Shown piece by piece: positions 48,480-64,000 of a stretch of DNA of 64,000 bases. The position numbers and the translations under genes are program-made. The notes beneath the pieces were generated by a model. The model worked only from the letters and a program-made list of their open reading frames with translations, searched no databases and was not told the origin of the DNA. Source of the stretch: Deroplatys truncata (Eukaryota > Arthropoda > Insecta > Mantodea > Mantidae); contig CM060985.1 of assembly GCA_030765065.1 (NCBI GenBank), forward strand, positions 558,001 to 622,000. The letters are read 5' to 3'. Numbering within the stretch: the first letter of the stretch is position 1; every line of letters begins with the position of its first letter.

Positions 48480-48714
48480 CTCGGAAATGGTTAACACAAA
48501 AAGTTTTATTCAACATAAATTGTGTGAAATTAATTGAAAACTCCACGGAATTAATAAACCACCTGCAGACCTACAACATCCCAAAAAACCACAATGGTAT
48601 CGTTTGATGTCAAAGCACTTTTCACCAGTATCCCCATAGAAAAAATCCCTACACTACTTAGAAAATGGTTAGATCAAACTACAATAGACTCCACAGAAAT
48701 AGATGACATCATCA

Positions 48715-49758
48715 ACCAGACATAACTTCTTCACATTTAACCATAAATTCTACAAACAATCAAAAGGACTAGCAATGGGAAGCCCACTGTCCCCCATTCT
48801 GGCAGAACTGTATATGAGCCACCTTGAAGTCCACATAGTGAAAGCTTTCCCCCACATATATAAATTTTGGTGGAGATATGTTGATGATATTTTTTCCATC
48901 ATACCACAGAAACTAACAGAAGACGCTTTGAAACTGTTGAACCTTCAGGACAACAGCATTAAATTCACAATCGAAATTGAAGAGAACAATACCTTACCCT
49001 TCCTGGACCTTACTATAACCAGAGATCAAAATAGCTTTAAATTCAGCATACATAGAAAACCCACACATGTGGACAACTATATAAAGAAAAATGGTTGCAA
49101 CCCAACTTCGCACCAACTAGCCGTCTTTAGAAGTTTAATCCACCGGTTGCATAGCATTCCCTTGAGTAAAGAAGAATTTTTAAAAGAACAACAACATATA
49201 GAAAAAATAGCAATAACTAATGGATTCAACTCAGATCTCATAAGCAACATGATATACAAGAAGGAAAAACTCAAGGCAATTTCACATTCCACCACTCTAA
49301 TGCCCCTCTCAAACACAAATTGGAAATACAAGAAATTCACATACCACCCTTGGGCCTTTAGAAAATTTGAACGAATCTTCAACAAATGTAACATTAGACT
49401 AGCTCCACAGAACAAATTCAGCTTGAAGAACTTACTAAACACACCTCTCAAAAATACCATCCCAAACACACTAAAATCCGGAATTTACGAGATCAGTTGT
49501 GAGGATTGTGAGAAATACTACATAGGAAAAACTAAAAGAAACTTGGAAACCAGACTCAAGGAACACCAAAGAAACATAAAACTAAAACAAATAGAGAAGT
49601 CCGCTGTATCACACCATTTTTGGACTGAAAACCACAACATTGGCCAAAGTATAAAGTTGTTAAAACCCCTCACCACACCAATAGAATTGAACATCTGGAA
49701 AAAATACACATCGTCAAAAACAGCAACAAAGTCATTAATTTTGAAATCCCGCCTGTAA
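48715..49758 (+). pseudogene. Penelope-like reverse transcriptase plus GIY-YIG endonuclease frame
   Basis: This open stretch of about 350 codons carries, in order, GLAMGSPLSPILAELYMSHL (motif B), YVDDIF (catalytic motif C, both Asp present), NNTLPFLDLTITRDQNSFKF (motif D/E region), RKPTHVDNYI, the linker FTYHPWAFRKFERIFNKCN, and a GIY-YIG nuclease (GIYEISCEDCEKYYIGKTKR, then NLETRLKEHQRNIK with its conserved Arg). The ATG at 48703 is not the true start: motif A lies upstream in another frame. GIY-YIG nucleases cut target DNA for these elements. Although long, the frame is incomplete at its start and shifted at its end. Confidence 0.9.
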
Positions 49759-49974: not shown

Positions 49975-50285
49975 CTTTAACAATATCTACACTTTTTGTG
50001 TAGTAACATTTTGTCTGTCTCTTATGGCTTACAAAAGTCATTCACAGGCTATTTCCAGAAAATTCAAGATATCCATTTTATTTGTCATGTAAGTATCTTT
50101 GAAATTAAAAAAAATAATTCAATATTTTCTATGTTAAGCATTTAACTGGCTGTTCATTGTTGAATTATGCTGACTGGACGCATGCACACACCTTTTTCTA
50201 AACAGGCATATTCTGGATTCAGGAAGTCCCTATGTCAAATTTTTGGGTGAAATACAATACTTGTTGTACTCAATAAAAGCTAAGT
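49975..50285 (+). repeat. Dispersed unclassified repeat, copy i
   Basis: AACAATATCTACACTTTTTG, TTTGTCTGTCTCTTATGGCT, GAAAATTCAAGATATCCATT and TTTTTGGGTGAAATACAATA match copy b in order, with an internal deletion. It ends 27 bp from the ABCA exon at 50312. Confidence 0.68.
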
Positions 50286-50311
50286 GAAAATTAGTCATAT
50301 TGCATACTTGC

Positions 50312-50472
50312 CTGCTTATCTCTTTGTGTGGGACTCCTCGGATTGCTGCATAACATTCCAGATGTTCTCTTACTGTTACGTTCTTCCACTGTGCATCATG
50401 TTGAGGACAGTATCCCATGAGTTTGAACGCCTCTGCTATGTTGGATGTTATGTTGTGACCCCCGATGTGCAC
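50312..50472 (-). CDS. ABCA transporter exon, Q-loop region of second NBD
   Basis: The minus strand reads VHIGGHNITSNIAEAFKLMG, then YCPQHDAQWKNVTVREHLEC and YAAIRGVPHKEIS. The glutamine of YCPQHDA is the Q-loop residue, and VREHL...YA.IRGV is a typical ABCA continuation. The exon begins in phase 0 after a CTGACCCAG acceptor and ends with two bases of an Arg codon before a GC donor (GCAAGT). All codons are open. Walker A is expected in the preceding exon, which must lie to the right of 50.5 kb; I did not find it up to 64 kb, so that intron may also be long. Confidence 0.93.
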
Positions 50473-52439
50473 CTGGGTCAGCAGAGAGTACATTATCAAG
50501 TACCTTTGTGGCACACTCCTAGCGCAAGCTAATGGTACAGCACTTAAACACATCTTGAAATATTGGGAATCGAAAATACTGTCAAGGACTATTTACAAAG
50601 CAAAATGGGAAGGAAGTTGGAAAATAGTCCAGCATATTGGAATGGGCAAGATAGAAAATCAGCAGATAACTAATGCATGAGAAATATGGAGCAATCAAGG
50701 ACTACTTCAGCAAATAGGGGCACGCATGTTTATCAGAAGGATTTGCGCAGGGGTACAATGTGGTTAACTCAGAATACCCTATCTAGGGTATAAATGATGC
50801 GATTTTATTCCCTAGATAACTGTTTCCAGTTTTAAAACTATTGCCAGCTTTGTTCTGCTGAAACTTGTGTTTTCACAATCAGCTGTGCAACAGGCAGAAA
50901 TGCTGAATCTAAGCAACGACATCGAGAACATTATTTTTTACTAACGTGTTCTCTGTTCAAGCAAAACTTTTTCCTAATATCATCCAGCTACTTTATGTCG
51001 TACCCAGAAATGTGTTTATCTCTGCAGTCAATTGGAATAAAATCACAATGTAAATATTCCAAATTATGAATTCTCCAATAATTTAAACTTAATCTGAACA
51101 CCCGTAGTTGTCTGGTCATCAACAGCACCTCCTCCGTGCATCAGGAAGCCTCTGTAACATTAGCTTCACCACTGTTAAACTTAACATAACCTCCAAATAC
51201 TGAAAATCACACAGAATGTCGCCAACATTCTCCCTTGTAGCTGTGTTATATTTTCAATAATGTTTCTGTACCTTTTGAATAACCATTCCTTTTCAACAAT
51301 AATAACTTAAACACACTCGTTATGTTGCTACACATTGCATCACCGTATTTTAGGTAGGATTTAACTTCACTGTTTGCATAAAACTATGCAAAGTGCTGAA
51401 ATTTTCTAGGTACATTATTCTGTTTTAAATAGTAACTTTATTGTACCTCATTTTTATATGTTCTAAATAACCATCAAATTAATCCTTTCTCAACTTGAAT
51501 CTCATTGTCGTGTTCATTTATCGGATCACCTCTACAATATATTGTGCTGAGTTTCATGGTTCTCAAAGACATATTATGAAGAAATTCATCATTTATACCG
51601 AACGAAACTGTGTCCAGTCATTTTCTTTTTATACTTAGAATAACAAGTTATCACTGAGTGAAAGCATGGAATAATTTATTCTGTGGTTATACCCATGATA
51701 GGCTCTATTCCAGTATCGTACAACACAATTTAGTGCCTAATCATGGAACAATATCTAACAGAGGTTTATTCCGAGTTCGTACAATTGACGTATAAGTGAC
51801 AAAAGGAGTATATACATTATGTGAAAATAATCTACAGATCATTCTATAGCAGATTATTCAAAAACTAAAATATGGAACAACAAGTGGGAGAATTTGCAGA
51901 TAAATATTTTGGCATTAAGCATTTTTGGAATTAGTAAAAGGAATTTTTTAAAGAATTTGGCAATTATATAGGGAAGAGAAAAGTAGTGGAGGAAAGTGAT
52001 TAAGGCAAAGGACGAATTTAATGACAGGGATATCGAAGAAAGCAAAGGAACAGGGATGGAAAGATGATCCTGTGTAGAAAAAGCCAAATATTAATGTCCA
52101 TTTTTAATAAAGTGTTAAGTAAAAGTGAAGCAGGATCCATTGCTGTTAGTTGTAGGGGTCCAAAACATCCCACATATTGTAAAACTGCAATGTAAATGTC
52201 TAGAAATAAATAAACCATCAAAAATGTTTGTAACAGTGAAGAAGCTAATTATATCTTATCATACTTTATTCACCGTTTGAATTTCATAAACAATATAGGC
52301 TTCATCAAACTTATAAATGAAGAAAGTATAAAACTTTTCAAACTCAAAACAATAACACTATTATAACTAAATGCAAATAGAAAGTAACGCTACATAAATA
52401 TTTACAAAGTAACGTGATGTTGTGGAAGTTATAATTTAG
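50473..52439. other. Upstream ABCA intron stretch, nothing recognised
   Basis: About 2 kb without identified elements. Short frames on either strand look composition-driven. The motif TATCTAGGGTATAAATGATG near 50780 is the only local oddity (a small TATCTAGGGTATA quasi-palindrome). Confidence 0.4.
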
Positions 52440-53990: not shown

Positions 53991-54446
53991 TTCATAACCA
54001 GAATTAAAACCATTGAAAATCAAACAAGTCATCCCAAAACCCCAAATTGTGACAGCAGTTCTACTACAGAGCTATCATTTGATACGTGGAATTGCTTGTC
54101 TTGCACTGCAATGCTTCTGATCCCTTACCATGTGCCAACTAATCGGCTGACACATGGTTGCTTGCCCTGCACTGCAATGTTTCTGATCCCTTACCATGTG
54201 CCAACTAATCAGCTGACACATGGTTGCTTGCCCTGCACTGCAATGTTTCTGATCCCTTACCATGTGCCAACTAATCAGCTGACACATGGTTGCTTGCCCT
54301 GCACTGCAATGCTTCTGATCCCTTACCATGTGCCAACTAATCGGCTGACACATGGTTGCTTGGCCTGCACTGCAATGCTTCTGATCCCTTACTAATCAGC
54401 TGACACATGGTTGCTTGCCCTGCACTGCAATGCTTCTGATCCCTTA

Positions 54447-54674
54447 CCATGTGTCAGCCGATTAGTTGGCACATGGTTGCTTGCCCTGCACTGCAATGTT
54501 TCTGATCCCTTACCATGTGTCAGCCGATTAGTTGGCACATGGTTGCTTGCCCTGCACTGCAATGCTTCTGATCCCTTACCATGTGTCAGCCGATTAGTTG
54601 GCACATGGTTGCTTGCCCTGCACTGCAATGTTTCTGATCCCTTACCATGTGTCAGCCGATTAGTTGGCACATGG
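54447..54674. repeat. Four consecutive flipped units in the 66-bp array
   Basis: Normal units carry CCATGTG, a core CCAACTAATCRGCTGA, then CACATGG. In units at 54447, 54513, 54579 and 54645 the 16-bp core is reverse-complemented (TCAGCCGATTAGTTGG) while the 7-bp arms and all flanks keep their orientation. Units alternate GTTTCTG and GCTTCTG, so the flipped form seems to have spread as a two-unit block. Confidence 0.95.
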
Positions 54675-55370
54675 TTGCTTGCCCTGCACTGCAATGCTTC
54701 TGATCCCTTACCATGTGCCAACTAATCGGCTGACACATGGTTGCTTGCCCTGCACTGCAATGCTTCTGATCCCTTACCATGTGCCAACTAATCAGCTGAC
54801 ACATGGTTGCTTGCCCTGCACTGCAATGCTTCTGATCCCTTACCATGTGCCAACTAATCAGCTGACACATGGTTGCTTGCCCTGCACTGCAATGCTTCTG
54901 ATCCCTTACCATGTGCCAACTAATCGGCTGACACATGGTTGCTTGCCCTGCACTGCAATGCTTCTGATCCCTTACCATGTGCCAACTAATCAGCTGACAC
55001 ATGGTTGCTTGCCCTGCACTGCAATGCTTCTGATCCCTTACCATGTGCCAACTAATCAGCTGACACATGGTTGCTTGCCCTGCACTGCAATGTTTCTGAT
55101 CCCTTACCATGTGCCAACTAATCGGCTGACACATGGTTGCTTGTCTTGCACTGCCATGTTTCTGATCCCTTACCATGTGCCAACTAATCGGCTGACACAT
55201 GGTTGCTTGTCCTGCACTGCAATGCTTCTGATCCCTTACCATGTGCCAACTAATCAGCTGACACATGGTTGCTTGCCCTGCACTGCAATGCTTCTGATCC
55301 CTTACCATGTGCCAACTAATCACCTGACACATGGTTGCTTGCCCTGCACTGCAATGTTTCTGATCCCTTA

Positions 55371-55400
55371 CCATGTGTCAGCCGATTAGTTGGCACATGG
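55371..55400. repeat. Fifth, isolated flipped unit in the 66-bp array
   Basis: The core at 55378-55393 is again TCAGCCGATTAGTTGG between CCATGTG and CACATGG. It lies 11 units from the cluster at 54447-54674, with normal units on both sides, so it is either an independent flip or a copied unit. Confidence 0.95.
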
Positions 55401-58400
55401 TTGCTTGCCCTGCACTGCAATGCTTCTGATCCCTTACCATGTGCCAAGTAATCGGCTGACACATGGTTGCTTGCCCTGCACTGCAATGCTTCTGATCCCT
55501 TACCATGTGCCAACTAATCAGCTGCCACATGGTTGCTTGCCCTGCACTGCAATGTTTCTGATCCCTTACCATGTGCCAACTAATCGGCTGACACATGGTT
55601 GCTTGTCTTGCACTCCAATGTTTCTGATCCCTTACCATGTGCCAACTAATCGGCTGACACATGGTTGCTTGCCCTGCACTGCAATGCTTCTGATCCCTTA
55701 CCATGTGCCAACTAATCCGCTGACACATGGTTGCTTGCCCTGCACTGCAATGCTTCTGATCCCTTACCATGTGCCAACTAATCAGCTGACACATGGTTGC
55801 TTGGCCTGCACTGCGATGTTTCTGATCCCTTACCATGTGCCAACTAATCAGCTGACACATGGTTGCTTGCCCTGCACTGCAATGCTTCTGATCCCTTACC
55901 ATGTGCCAACTAATCAGCTGACACATGGTTGCTTGCCCTGCACTGCAATGCTTCTGATCCCTTACCATGTGCCAACTAATCGGCTCACACATGGTTGCTT
56001 GCCCTGCACTGCAATGCTTCTGATCCCTTACCATGTGCCAACTAATCAGCTGACACATGGTTGCTTGCCCTGCACTGCGTTGTTTCTGATCCCTTACCAT
56101 GTGCCAACTAATCAGCTGACACATGTTTGCTTGCCCTGCACTGCAATGTTTTGATCCCTTACCATGTGTCAAGTAATCAGCTGACACATGGTTGCTTGGC
56201 CTGCACTGCAATGTTTCTGATCCCTTACCATGTGCCAACTAATCAGCTGACACATGGTTGCTTGCCCTGCATTGCAATGCTTCTGATCCCTTACCATGTG
56301 CCAACTAATCAGCTGACACATGGTTGCTTGCCCTGCACTGCAATGCTTCTGATCCCTTACCAATCAGCTGACACATGATTGCTTGGCCTGCACTGCGATG
56401 CTTCTGATCCCTTACCAATCAGCTGACACATGGTTGCTTGCCCTGCACTGCAATGCTTCTGATCCCTTACCATGTGCCAACTAATCAGCTGACACATGGT
56501 TGCTTGGCCTGCACTGCAATACTTCTGATCCCTTACCATGTGCCAACTAATCAGCTGACACATGGTTGCTTGGCCTGCACTGCGATGTTTCTGATCCCTT
56601 ACCATGTGCCAACTAATCAGCTGACACATGGTTGCTTGGCCTGCACTGCGATGTTTCTGATCCCTTACCATGTGCCAACTAATCATCTGACACATGGTTG
56701 CTTGGCCTGCACTGCGATGTTTCTGATCCCTTACCATGTGCCAACTAATCAGCTGACACATGGTTGCTTGGCCTGCACTGCGATGTTTCTGATCCCTTAC
56801 CATGTGCCAACTAATCAGCTGACACATGGTTGCTTGGCCTGCACTGCGATGTTTCTGATCCCTTACCATGTGCCAACTAATCAGCTGACACATGGTTGCT
56901 TGGCCTGCACTGCAATGTTTCTGATCCCTTACCATGTGCCAACTAATCAGCTGACACATGGTTACTTGCCCTGCACTGCAATGCTTCTGATCCCTTACCA
57001 TGTGCCAACTAATCAGCTGACACATGGTTGCTTGGCCTGCACTGCAATGCTTCTGATCCCTTACCATGTGCCAACTAATCAGCTGACACATGGTTGCTTG
57101 GCCTGCACTGCAATGCTTCTGATCCCTTACCATGTGCCAACTAATCAGCTGACACATGGTTGCTTGCCCTGCACTGCAATGCTTCTGATCCCTTACCATG
57201 TGCCAACTAATCAGCTGACACATGGTTGCTTGCCCTGCACTGCAATGCTTCCGATCCCTTACCATGTGCCAACTAATCAGCTGACACATGGTTACTTGCC
57301 CTGCACTGCAATGCTTCTGATCCCTTACCATGTGCCAACTAATCAGCTGACACATGGTTGCTTGGCCTGCACTGCGATGTTTCTGATCCCTTACCATGTG
57401 CCAACTAATCAGCTGACACATGGTTGCTTGGCCTGCACTGCGATGTTTCTGATCCCTTACCATGTGCCAACTAATCATCTGACACATGGTTGCTTGGCCT
57501 GCACTGCGATGTTTCTGATCCCTTACCATGTGCCAACTAATCAGCTGACACATGGTTGCTTGGCCTGCACTGCGATGTTTCTGATCCCTTACCATGTGCC
57601 AACTAATCAGCTGACACATGGTTGCTTGGCCTGCACTGCGATGTTTCTGATCCCTTACCATGTGCCAACTAATCAGCTGACACATGGTTGCTTGGCCTGC
57701 ACTGCAATGTTTCTGATCCCTTACCATGTGCCAACTAATCAGCTGACACATGGTTACTTGTCCTGCACTGCAATGCTTCTGATCCCTTACCATGTGCCAA
57801 CTAATCAGCTGACACATGGTTGCTTGGCCTGCACTGCAATGCTTCTGATCCCTTACCATGTGCCAACTAATCAGCTGACACATGGTTGCTTGCCCTGCAT
57901 TGCAATGCTTCTGATCCCTTACCATGTGCCAACTAATCAGCTGACACATGGTTGCTTGCCCTGCACTGCAATGCTTCTGATCCCTTACCATGTGCCAACT
58001 AATCAGCTGACACATGGTTGCTTGCCCTGCACTGCAATGCTTCTGATCCCTTACCATGTGCCAAATAATCAGCTGACACATGGTTACTTGCCCTGCACTG
58101 CAATGCTTCTGATCCCTTACCATGTGCCAACTAATCATCTGACACATGGTTGCTTGGCCTGCACTGCGATGTTTCTGATCCCTTACCATGTGCCAACTAA
58201 TCAGCTGACACATGGTTGCTTGGCCTGCACTGCGATGTTTCTGATCCCTTACCATGTGCCAACTAATCAGCTGACACATGGTTGCTTGGCCTGCACTGCG
58301 ATGTTTCTGATCCCTTACCATGTGCCAACTAATCAGCTGACACATGGTTGCTTGGCGTGCACTGCAATGTTTCTGATCCCTTACCATGTGCCAACTAATC

Positions 58401-58969
58401 AGCTGACACATGGTTACTTGCCCTGCACTGCAATGCTTCTGATCCCTTACCATGTGCCAACTAATCAGCTGACACATGGTTGCTTGGCCTGCACTGCAAT
58501 GCTTCTGATCCCTTACCATGTGCCAACTAATCAGCTGACACATGGTTGCTTGGCCTGCACTGCAATGCTTCTGATCCCTTACCATGTGCCAACTAATCAG
58601 CTGACACATGGTTGCTTGCCATGCACTGCAATGCTTCTGATCCCTTACCATGTGCCAACTAATCAGCTGACACATGGTTGCTTGCCCTGCACTGCAATGC
58701 TTCTGATCCCTTACCATGTGCCAACTAATCAGCTGACACATGGTTACTTGCCCTGCACTGCAATGCTTCTGATCCCTTACCATGTGCCAACTAATCAGCT
58801 GACACATGGTTGCTTGGCCTGCACTGCGATGTTTCTGATCCCTTACCATGTGCCAACTAATCAGCTGACACATGGTTGCTTGGCCTGCACTGCAATGCTT
58901 CTGATCCCTTACCATGTGCCAACTAATCAGCTGACACATGGTTGCTTGGCCTGCACTGCGATGTTCTGT

Positions 58970-62814: not shown

Positions 62815-62998
62815 ATGCGATTTAAGGGCGCTAAACAGCTAAGGTCATCAGCGCCCTTACAAGGTATAAAATTTAAAGTCCAAAAATAAAATAGGAGTAA
62901 AAAACCGCATAGTCAAAAATACTCTAAAACAAGTCATCAAATGCTAAAACCACCACATAAACATGTTAAACAAACCAATAATAGACCCATTATCTACT
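62815..62998. mobile_element. SINE-like sequence with hairpin
   Basis: AAGGGCGCT, then AAACAGCTAAGGTCATC, then AGCGCCCTT form a 9-bp perfect stem with a 17-base loop. The pattern GATGAT...AAGGG...CTAA...CTAAGGTCATC...CCCTT is one I associate with widespread short interspersed repeats in polyneopteran insects. The rest to 62998 is an A-rich body without structure. No tRNA head was seen, so the piece may be a SINE 3' part. Confidence 0.45.
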
Positions 62999-64000
62999 GT
63001 TATAATGCCAGCACACAGAATCTTCATGTATGATTCCTATGTGACAACAAGCTATTGTAGAGAAGTAAGACATATTCCATTCTGTTATAATGCTGGAATA
63101 CAGAATCTTCATGTTTGATTCCTATGTGACAACATACTCTTGTAGAGAAGTGAGACATTCCCTCCTGTTATAATGCTAGCGCACAGAATCTTCATGTTTG
63201 ATTCCAATGTGACAACAAACTCTTGTAGACACGTGAGACATTCCCTAGTTATCATGCCAGAACACAGAATCTTAATGTATGATTCCTGTGTGACAACAAA
63301 CTCTTGTAGGGAAGTGAGACATTCCCTACTGTTATAATGCCAGCACACAGAATCTTCATGTATGATTCCTATGTAACAACAAACTCTTGTAGAGAAGTGA
63401 GACATTCCCTACTGTTATAATGCCAGCACACAGAATCTTCATGTATGATTCCTATGTGACAACAAACTCTTGTAGAGAAGTGAGACAGTCCCTACTGTTA
63501 TAATGCCAGCAGACAGAATCTTAATGTATGATTCCTGTGTGACAACAAACTCTTGTAGGGAAGTGAGACATTCCCTACTGTTATAATGCCAGCACACAGA
63601 ATCTTCATGTATGATTCCTATGTAACAACAAACTCTTGTAGAGAAGTGAGACATTCCCTACTGTTATAATGCCAGCACACAGAATCTTCATGTATGATTC
63701 CTATGTGACAACAAACTCTTGTAGAAAAGTGAGACATTCCCTACTGTTATAATGCCAGCACACAGAATCTTCATGTATGATTCCTATGTGACAACAAACT
63801 CTTGTAGAGAAGTGAGACATATTCCATTCTGTTATAATGCTAGAATACAGAATCTTCATGTTTGATTCCAATGTGACAACAAACTCTTGTAGAGAAGTGA
63901 GACATTCCCTACTGTTATAATGCCAGCACACAGAATCTTCATGTATGATTCCTATGTGACAACAAACTCTTGTAGAGAAGTGAGACATTCCCTACTGTTA
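62999..64000. repeat. 83-bp tandem array, about 12 copies, runs off the window
   Basis: The unit reads GTTATAATGCCAGCACACAG, AATCTTCATGTATGATTCCT, ATGTGACAACAAACTCTTGT and AGAGAAGTGAGACATTCCCT. Unit starts such as 62999, 63084 and 63167 give 83-85 bp. A three-unit pattern is visible: CTTAATG variants at 63271 and 63520 are 249 bp apart. Minus-strand frames across it are shadows. Confidence 0.96.

What the first reader, a model, noticed from the sequence alone, without database searches (positions are those of the whole stretch)
54447..55400. Repeated flips of a 16-bp core between inverted arms in a 66-bp minisatellite
Five of about 74 units have the core between CCATGTG and CACATGG reverse-complemented while arms and flanks stay put (cores at 54454, 54520, 54586, 54652 and 55378). 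The exact limits at the 7-bp inverted arms point to hairpin- or cruciform-mediated inversion, template switching, or less likely a recombinase acting at the arms. Four flips lie in a row with alternating T/C variants, suggesting one flip followed by spread as a dimer, plus one copied or independent flip 11 units away. Clean arm-bounded microinversion visible as a polymorphism inside an array is unusual.
Basis: partly seen in the sequence, partly recalled or inferred. Interest (0 to 1): 0.75.

Follow-up and report, generated by a model that had tools for sequence, protein, structure and literature searches.

The report
Short inverted segment within a minisatellite
Five repeat units in a tandem array carry the same 16-base stretch turned around between short mirror-image arms, most likely one ordinary small copying error at a hairpin that was then multiplied as the array grew.

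Summary
In the 66-bp array (54092-58963, 75 units by my split), 5 of 70 full-length units (6, 7, 8, 9, 20) carry the 16-bp core exactly reverse-complemented between unchanged arms. A scan of 16 arrays (504 unit rows) found only these five; reversed-only and complement-only controls gave none.

New facts:
(1) The arms are 8 bp, and the core is itself quasi-palindromic: 12-13 of 16 pairs of a 32-bp hairpin match.
(2) The unit comes from a dispersed repeat. Its core with left flank is found 1009 times forward and 0 times flipped, so the flip is derived.
(3) The five flipped cores are identical and of the minority G type, and four are adjacent. One flip, then copying, is favoured over five flips.
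(4) In 14 dispersed copies the exact arms are 0-4 bp; in the array, 8.

This is a microinversion at short inverted repeats, a described class (59 of 17-33 nt between human and chimpanzee, all flanked by inverted repeats; PMC8755829). Double template switching or microhomology-mediated repair would explain it. A recombinase is unlikely across 16 bp. It is a tidy example of a known kind.

The parts
54092..58963 (+). 66-bp minisatellite array, 75 units (70 of 66 bp, three of 55 bp, one of 65 bp, the last truncated)
   Evidence: TRF; unit split
54446..54477 (+). 32-bp inverted-repeat block of unit 6, core flipped (54454-54469)
54512..54543 (+). 32-bp block of unit 7, core flipped
54578..54609 (+). 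32-bp block of unit 8, core flipped
54644..54675 (+). 32-bp block of unit 9, core flipped
55370..55401 (+). 32-bp block of unit 20, core flipped
54356..54410 (+). unit 5 with an 11-bp deletion that removes most of the left arm and part of the core
56324..56433 (+). units 35 and 36, each with an 11-bp deletion of most of the left arm and part of the core
54065..54091 (+). probable remnant of the part of the dispersed repeat that precedes the unit (shortened; judged by eye on the alignment)
62994..64000 (+). 83-bp array, reaching the window's end; an expansion of the neighbouring segment of the same dispersed repeat, separated from the 66-bp array by LINE-like and other sequence

Best explanation
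A single microinversion of the 16-bp core happened in one G-type unit. The 8-bp inverted arms let a DNA 3' end pair with the wrong arm on the opposite strand or the sister chromatid, copy the core in reverse, and return at the other arm. The flipped unit was then multiplied by the unequal exchange or gene conversion that reshapes the array, giving four neighbours and one copy 11 units away. Shown: the exact inversion, its limits, its derived polarity and unchanged flanks. Inferred: a single event, the copying mechanism and the mode of spread.
For: Exact reverse complement with unchanged flanks in 5 of 70 full units, none in reversed or complement controls over 16 arrays. With a full right arm required, the only flips in the genome are these five. 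The five cores are identical and G type; run of four p = 0.003, all-G p = 0.006 under random independent flips in units 1-37. The array shows other block duplication: units 39-44 are identical to 51-56. The 32-mers fold at -6.4 to -10.3 kcal/mol as DNA, z -2.9 to -4.4. Described microinversions have the same geometry.
Against: Flipped units occur on both the C and the T background at position 23, so a single event needs a later C/T change or exchange between that site and the core, about 20 bp away. Unit 19 is unflipped where unit 8, its counterpart if 9 and 20 are copies, is flipped. Outside the core the units vary so little that the shared-block argument is weak (units 7-10 fit 20-23 almost as well as 9-12 do). 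Template switching at imperfect inverted repeats is said to make them perfect (PMC8755829), and no perfected core is present; this weighs more against simple fold-back switching than against a double switch or break repair.
Confidence: 0.75

Rival explanations
1. Two or more independent flips in this array: the hairpin is a hotspot that flips again and again.
For: C and T backgrounds at position 23; a second location 11 units away; the array has 8-bp arms, where 14 dispersed copies have exact arms of 0-4 bp; three units have lost 11 bp of the left hairpin half, which may mean a fragile site.
Against: The five cores are identical and G type; no A-type flip among the 70 full units.
Confidence: 0.18
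2. Site-specific recombinase or invertase acting at the arms.
For: Exact limits at inverted arms.
Against: Only 16 bp lie between the arms, too short to loop for synapsis (argument in PMC8755829). Inversions between arms of different units, which would turn whole 66-bp blocks, are absent from the array. I did not search for an invertase gene; six window frames scanned against Pfam showed none, which says little.
Confidence: 0.02
3. Assembly or consensus error.
For: Tandem arrays are hard to assemble, and no reads could be seen.
Against: An error that exactly reverse-complements 16 bp between arms five times, with different linked variants, is hard to produce (inference). The contig is chromosome-scale (C11, 200 Mb), which does not by itself vouch for the array.
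Confidence: 0.03
4. The flipped orientation is ancestral or came from another locus.
For: The unit belongs to a dispersed family with many copies.
Against: 0 flipped against 1009 forward matches; 14 of 14 aligned dispersed copies forward, though these were found with a forward query.
Confidence: 0.02

Closest known systems
Definite microinversions flanked by inverted repeats (Potapova, Kondrashov and Mirkin 2022, PMC8755829; abstract, whole Discussion and passages of the Results seen)
   Same: Precise inversion of a short segment with inverted repeats at its edges; arms of 4-8 nt are the largest class there (50%).
   Different: This core is 16 nt, just under their 17-33 nt range, and lies inside a tandem array where the flip is present in five units.
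Short-range template switches (Walker et al. 2021, PMC7954356; abstract and outline seen)
   Same: Local template switching produces clusters of changes that look like separate mutations.
   Different: Here it is seen among paralogous units of one array, not between species.
Hairpin-associated small inversions in chloroplast genomes (only the search listing seen; details recalled)
   Same: Loop between short inverted repeats turned around.
   Different: Nuclear contig, inside a minisatellite; recurrence not shown.
Tetris/TIR-220 of Drosophila virilis (PMC4079207; abstract and outline seen)
   Same: Segment of a transposable element amplified into a satellite-like array.
   Different: Different element; it bears on the array's origin, not on the flip.

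Membership tests
Inverted-repeat-bounded microinversion | Segment equals the exact reverse complement of the unflipped segment | tested here: met
Inverted-repeat-bounded microinversion | Inverted repeats abut the segment | tested here: met
   8-bp arms directly adjacent
Inverted-repeat-bounded microinversion | Orientation polarised by an outgroup | tested here: met
   1009 forward, 0 flipped in the dispersed family; outgroup within the genome only, no other species
Inverted-repeat-bounded microinversion | Length of at least 17 nt, the range reported in PMC8755829 | tested here: not met
   16 nt. That paper says it analysed only segments longer than 15 nt to avoid false positives, so the limit concerns detection, not mechanism; here chance is excluded by 8 mirrored changes and the controls.
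Site-specific DNA inversion system | Spacer long enough for synapsis of the two sites | tested here: not met
   16 bp between the arms; the length needed is taken from PMC8755829
Site-specific DNA inversion system | Dedicated recombinase | not tested
   only six window frames were scanned against Pfam
Quasi-palindrome correction | Product is a more perfect palindrome | tested here: not met
   no perfectly palindromic core among the 66-bp units

The most novel reading that the evidence does not exclude
The gain of full 8-bp arms, present in the array but not in the 14 dispersed copies measured, turned an inert sequence into a flip hotspot that keeps inverting in this array, so the array works as a natural recorder of microinversion.
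Probability: 0.12. Interest if true: 0.55.

Novelty: new member of a known kind. Interest (0 to 1): 0.25.

Why it matters
An array with 70 units that carry the same armed hairpin, plus about a thousand related sites elsewhere, is a convenient natural test of how arm length governs microinversion. If flips recur in other individuals, their rate per hairpin could be measured directly. As seen in one assembly, it is an ordinary event made visible by tandem duplication.

Tried and rejected
Coding explanation: 66 is a multiple of 3 and long open frames exist on both strands, but frames on both strands stop at the flips (ORFs bounded at 54652/54664 and 55377-55390), so I propose no coding role. Wider occurrence: the 15 other arrays scanned (429 unit rows) have no inverted segment. 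Eleven of the 15 belong to the 81/83/85-bp expansions of the same dispersed repeat, so they are not independent kinds of array; other tandem repeats listed were not scanned. The scan needed at least 5 mismatches to the consensus and a segment of 8-40 bp inside one unit, so short or unit-crossing inversions would be missed. Half-converted cores: unit 32 has T at core position 1, but its other changes do not fit a partial flip. Identity of the dispersed repeat: one downstream piece (L026) reaches Pfam DUF4817 at 22.7 bits against a cut-off of 22.6; two other pieces gave only matches below their cut-offs, so 'relic of a DNA transposon' is likely, not certain. Literature: two searches that combined inversion terms with 'minisatellite' gave 0 papers; 'microinversion' with 'tandem repeat' and 'inverted repeats' gave 10, of which I saw the listing only, and one of them (PMC7954356) by its abstract too; a satellite-DNA search gave 1, of which I saw passages (PMC13081366; it concerns kilobase inverted subarrays, not this). 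This is no proof that such a case is unpublished. An earlier count said that all but two matches lie in the array; this is wrong: 70 do, so 6 of 76 lie elsewhere, 2 of which are displayed (C4, C5).

Full report
What is there. The window lies on contig C11 of a 4.29-Gb genome in 818 contigs. A Penelope-like RT/GIY-YIG frame and a DDE_3 match below its cut-off suggest an arthropod; this is inference. The 66-bp array runs from 54092 to about 58963. Split at TTGCTTG or TTACTTG, it has 75 units: 70 of 66 bp, three of 55 bp, one of 65 bp and a truncated last one. Five units (6-9 and 20) have core TCAGCCGATTAGTTGG, the exact reverse complement of the G-type core CCAACTAATCGGCTGA, in unchanged flanks.

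The exact arms are 8 bp, and the core is partly its own reverse complement, so the block ACCATGTG-core-CACATGGT pairs with itself at 13 of 16 positions in the A type and 12 of 16 in the G type. One strand folds better than the other (DNA parameters: -7.1 against -10.3 kcal/mol for the A type, -6.4 against -8.5 for the G type). In window 30001-54000, 25 positions begin an exact 8-bp inverted pair with a spacer of up to 20, about 0.07 per 66 bp, so a unit that carries such arms is not in itself remarkable.

Is it more than chance? A scan of 16 arrays (504 unit rows, edge rows included; 4 arrays in the window, 12 in fetched loci) for segments that fit the reverse complement better than the forward consensus found the five units and nothing else; reversed and complemented controls found nothing.

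Origin and polarity. The unit is derived from a dispersed repeat. A search of the own genome with the unit gave 102 matches: 74 in the array, 5 more that are the flipped blocks read on the other strand, and 23 diverged ones elsewhere. Fourteen dispersed copies aligned share the sequence around ATTGCTTGCCCTGCACTGC...CATGTGCC(A/G)GCTAATCAGTTGA, and several continue into the 83/85-bp segment that forms a second array in the window at 62994-64000. The 66-bp and 83-bp arrays thus look like expansions of adjacent parts of one element, separated here by LINE-like sequence (GDSL-like and endonuclease-like frames, both below the Pfam cut-offs). Separate 81-bp arrays from the same segment occur in L015 and L023-L025. 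The core with its left flank occurs 1009 times forward (509 + 500, up to 2 mismatches, backward control 0; some are units of other arrays, and only the first 100 places were displayed) and 0 times flipped (control 0). With the full right arm required and up to 3 mismatches, the flip pattern matches the five flipped units and, through its near-palindromic nature, 55 unflipped array units on the other strand and the forward copy at C11:21304517. The forward pattern finds five sites outside the array (C1, C11:21304517, two on C12, C13), all forward. In the 14 aligned copies the forward core fits better than the flipped one in every case, and the exact arms adjoining the core are 0-4 bp. Those 14 were found with a forward query, a bias that the pattern counts do not share. 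Forward is therefore ancestral. The copy at C11:21.30 Mb (L021), with right arm CACATGGTTG and one mismatch in the arms, may resemble the founder of the array.

One flip or several. The five cores are identical and carry the G variant, which is in 10 of 28 unflipped full units of units 1-37 and in none of the later ones. Five independent random flips would all be G with probability 0.006, and a run of four has probability 0.003. Outside the core, units 9-12 match 20-23 with 0, 0, 0 and 1 differences, but units 7-10 match them with 0, 0, 1 and 1, so this is weak support. Against a single event: flips occur with both C and T at position 23, and unit 19, the counterpart of flipped unit 8, is not flipped. 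The array does duplicate in blocks (units 39-44 identical to 51-56). One flip plus copying is the simplest account; two flips are not excluded.

Mechanism. Two template switches at the arms during replication, or break repair in which one arm invades the other arm of the sister chromatid, both give an exact flip (models in PMC8755829, Discussion). Simple fold-back copying would make the palindrome perfect, and no 66-bp unit shows that. A recombinase would need the arms to synapse over 16 bp. Three units have lost 11 bp from the left half of the hairpin, in keeping with a fragile site, though the three deletions may be copies of one or two events.

Comparison and verdict. Potapova et al. describe 59 microinversions of 17-33 nt, each flanked by inverted repeats of 3-75 nt; [quoted passage not shown] The present flip shares this anatomy at 16 nt. 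Its multiplication follows from its place in an array. It is a new member of a known kind, of modest interest.

Noticed in passing
window 6586-27299: A 107-bp tandem array of about 193 copies, 20.7 kb long, 94% matches, with no inverted segments found.
   Followed up: partly
window 54092-58963 and 62994-64000; L015, L016, L020, L022-L025, L027: Neighbouring segments of one dispersed repeat have expanded into minisatellites of 66/81 bp and 83/85 bp at several loci.
   Followed up: partly
window 56566-58963: Higher-order repetition of about 10-12 units in the right part of the array; units 39-44 identical to 51-56.
   Followed up: partly
window 54356-54410 and 56324-56433: Units 5, 35 and 36 have 11-bp deletions of the left hairpin half; unit 5 differs from the other two by one base at the junction.
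   Followed up: no
L023 and L024 (C15, about 60 kb apart): Two stretches with the same pair of 81-bp and 85-bp arrays of equal length and copy number, apparently a recent segmental duplication.
   Followed up: no
window 48703-49758 +: Open frame with reverse transcriptase and GIY-YIG domains, Penelope-like (the name Penelope is recalled).
   Followed up: no
window 50230-50592 -: Short frame that resembles an ABC transporter (ABCA) exon by eye (recalled); no Pfam match at E 0.001.
   Followed up: no
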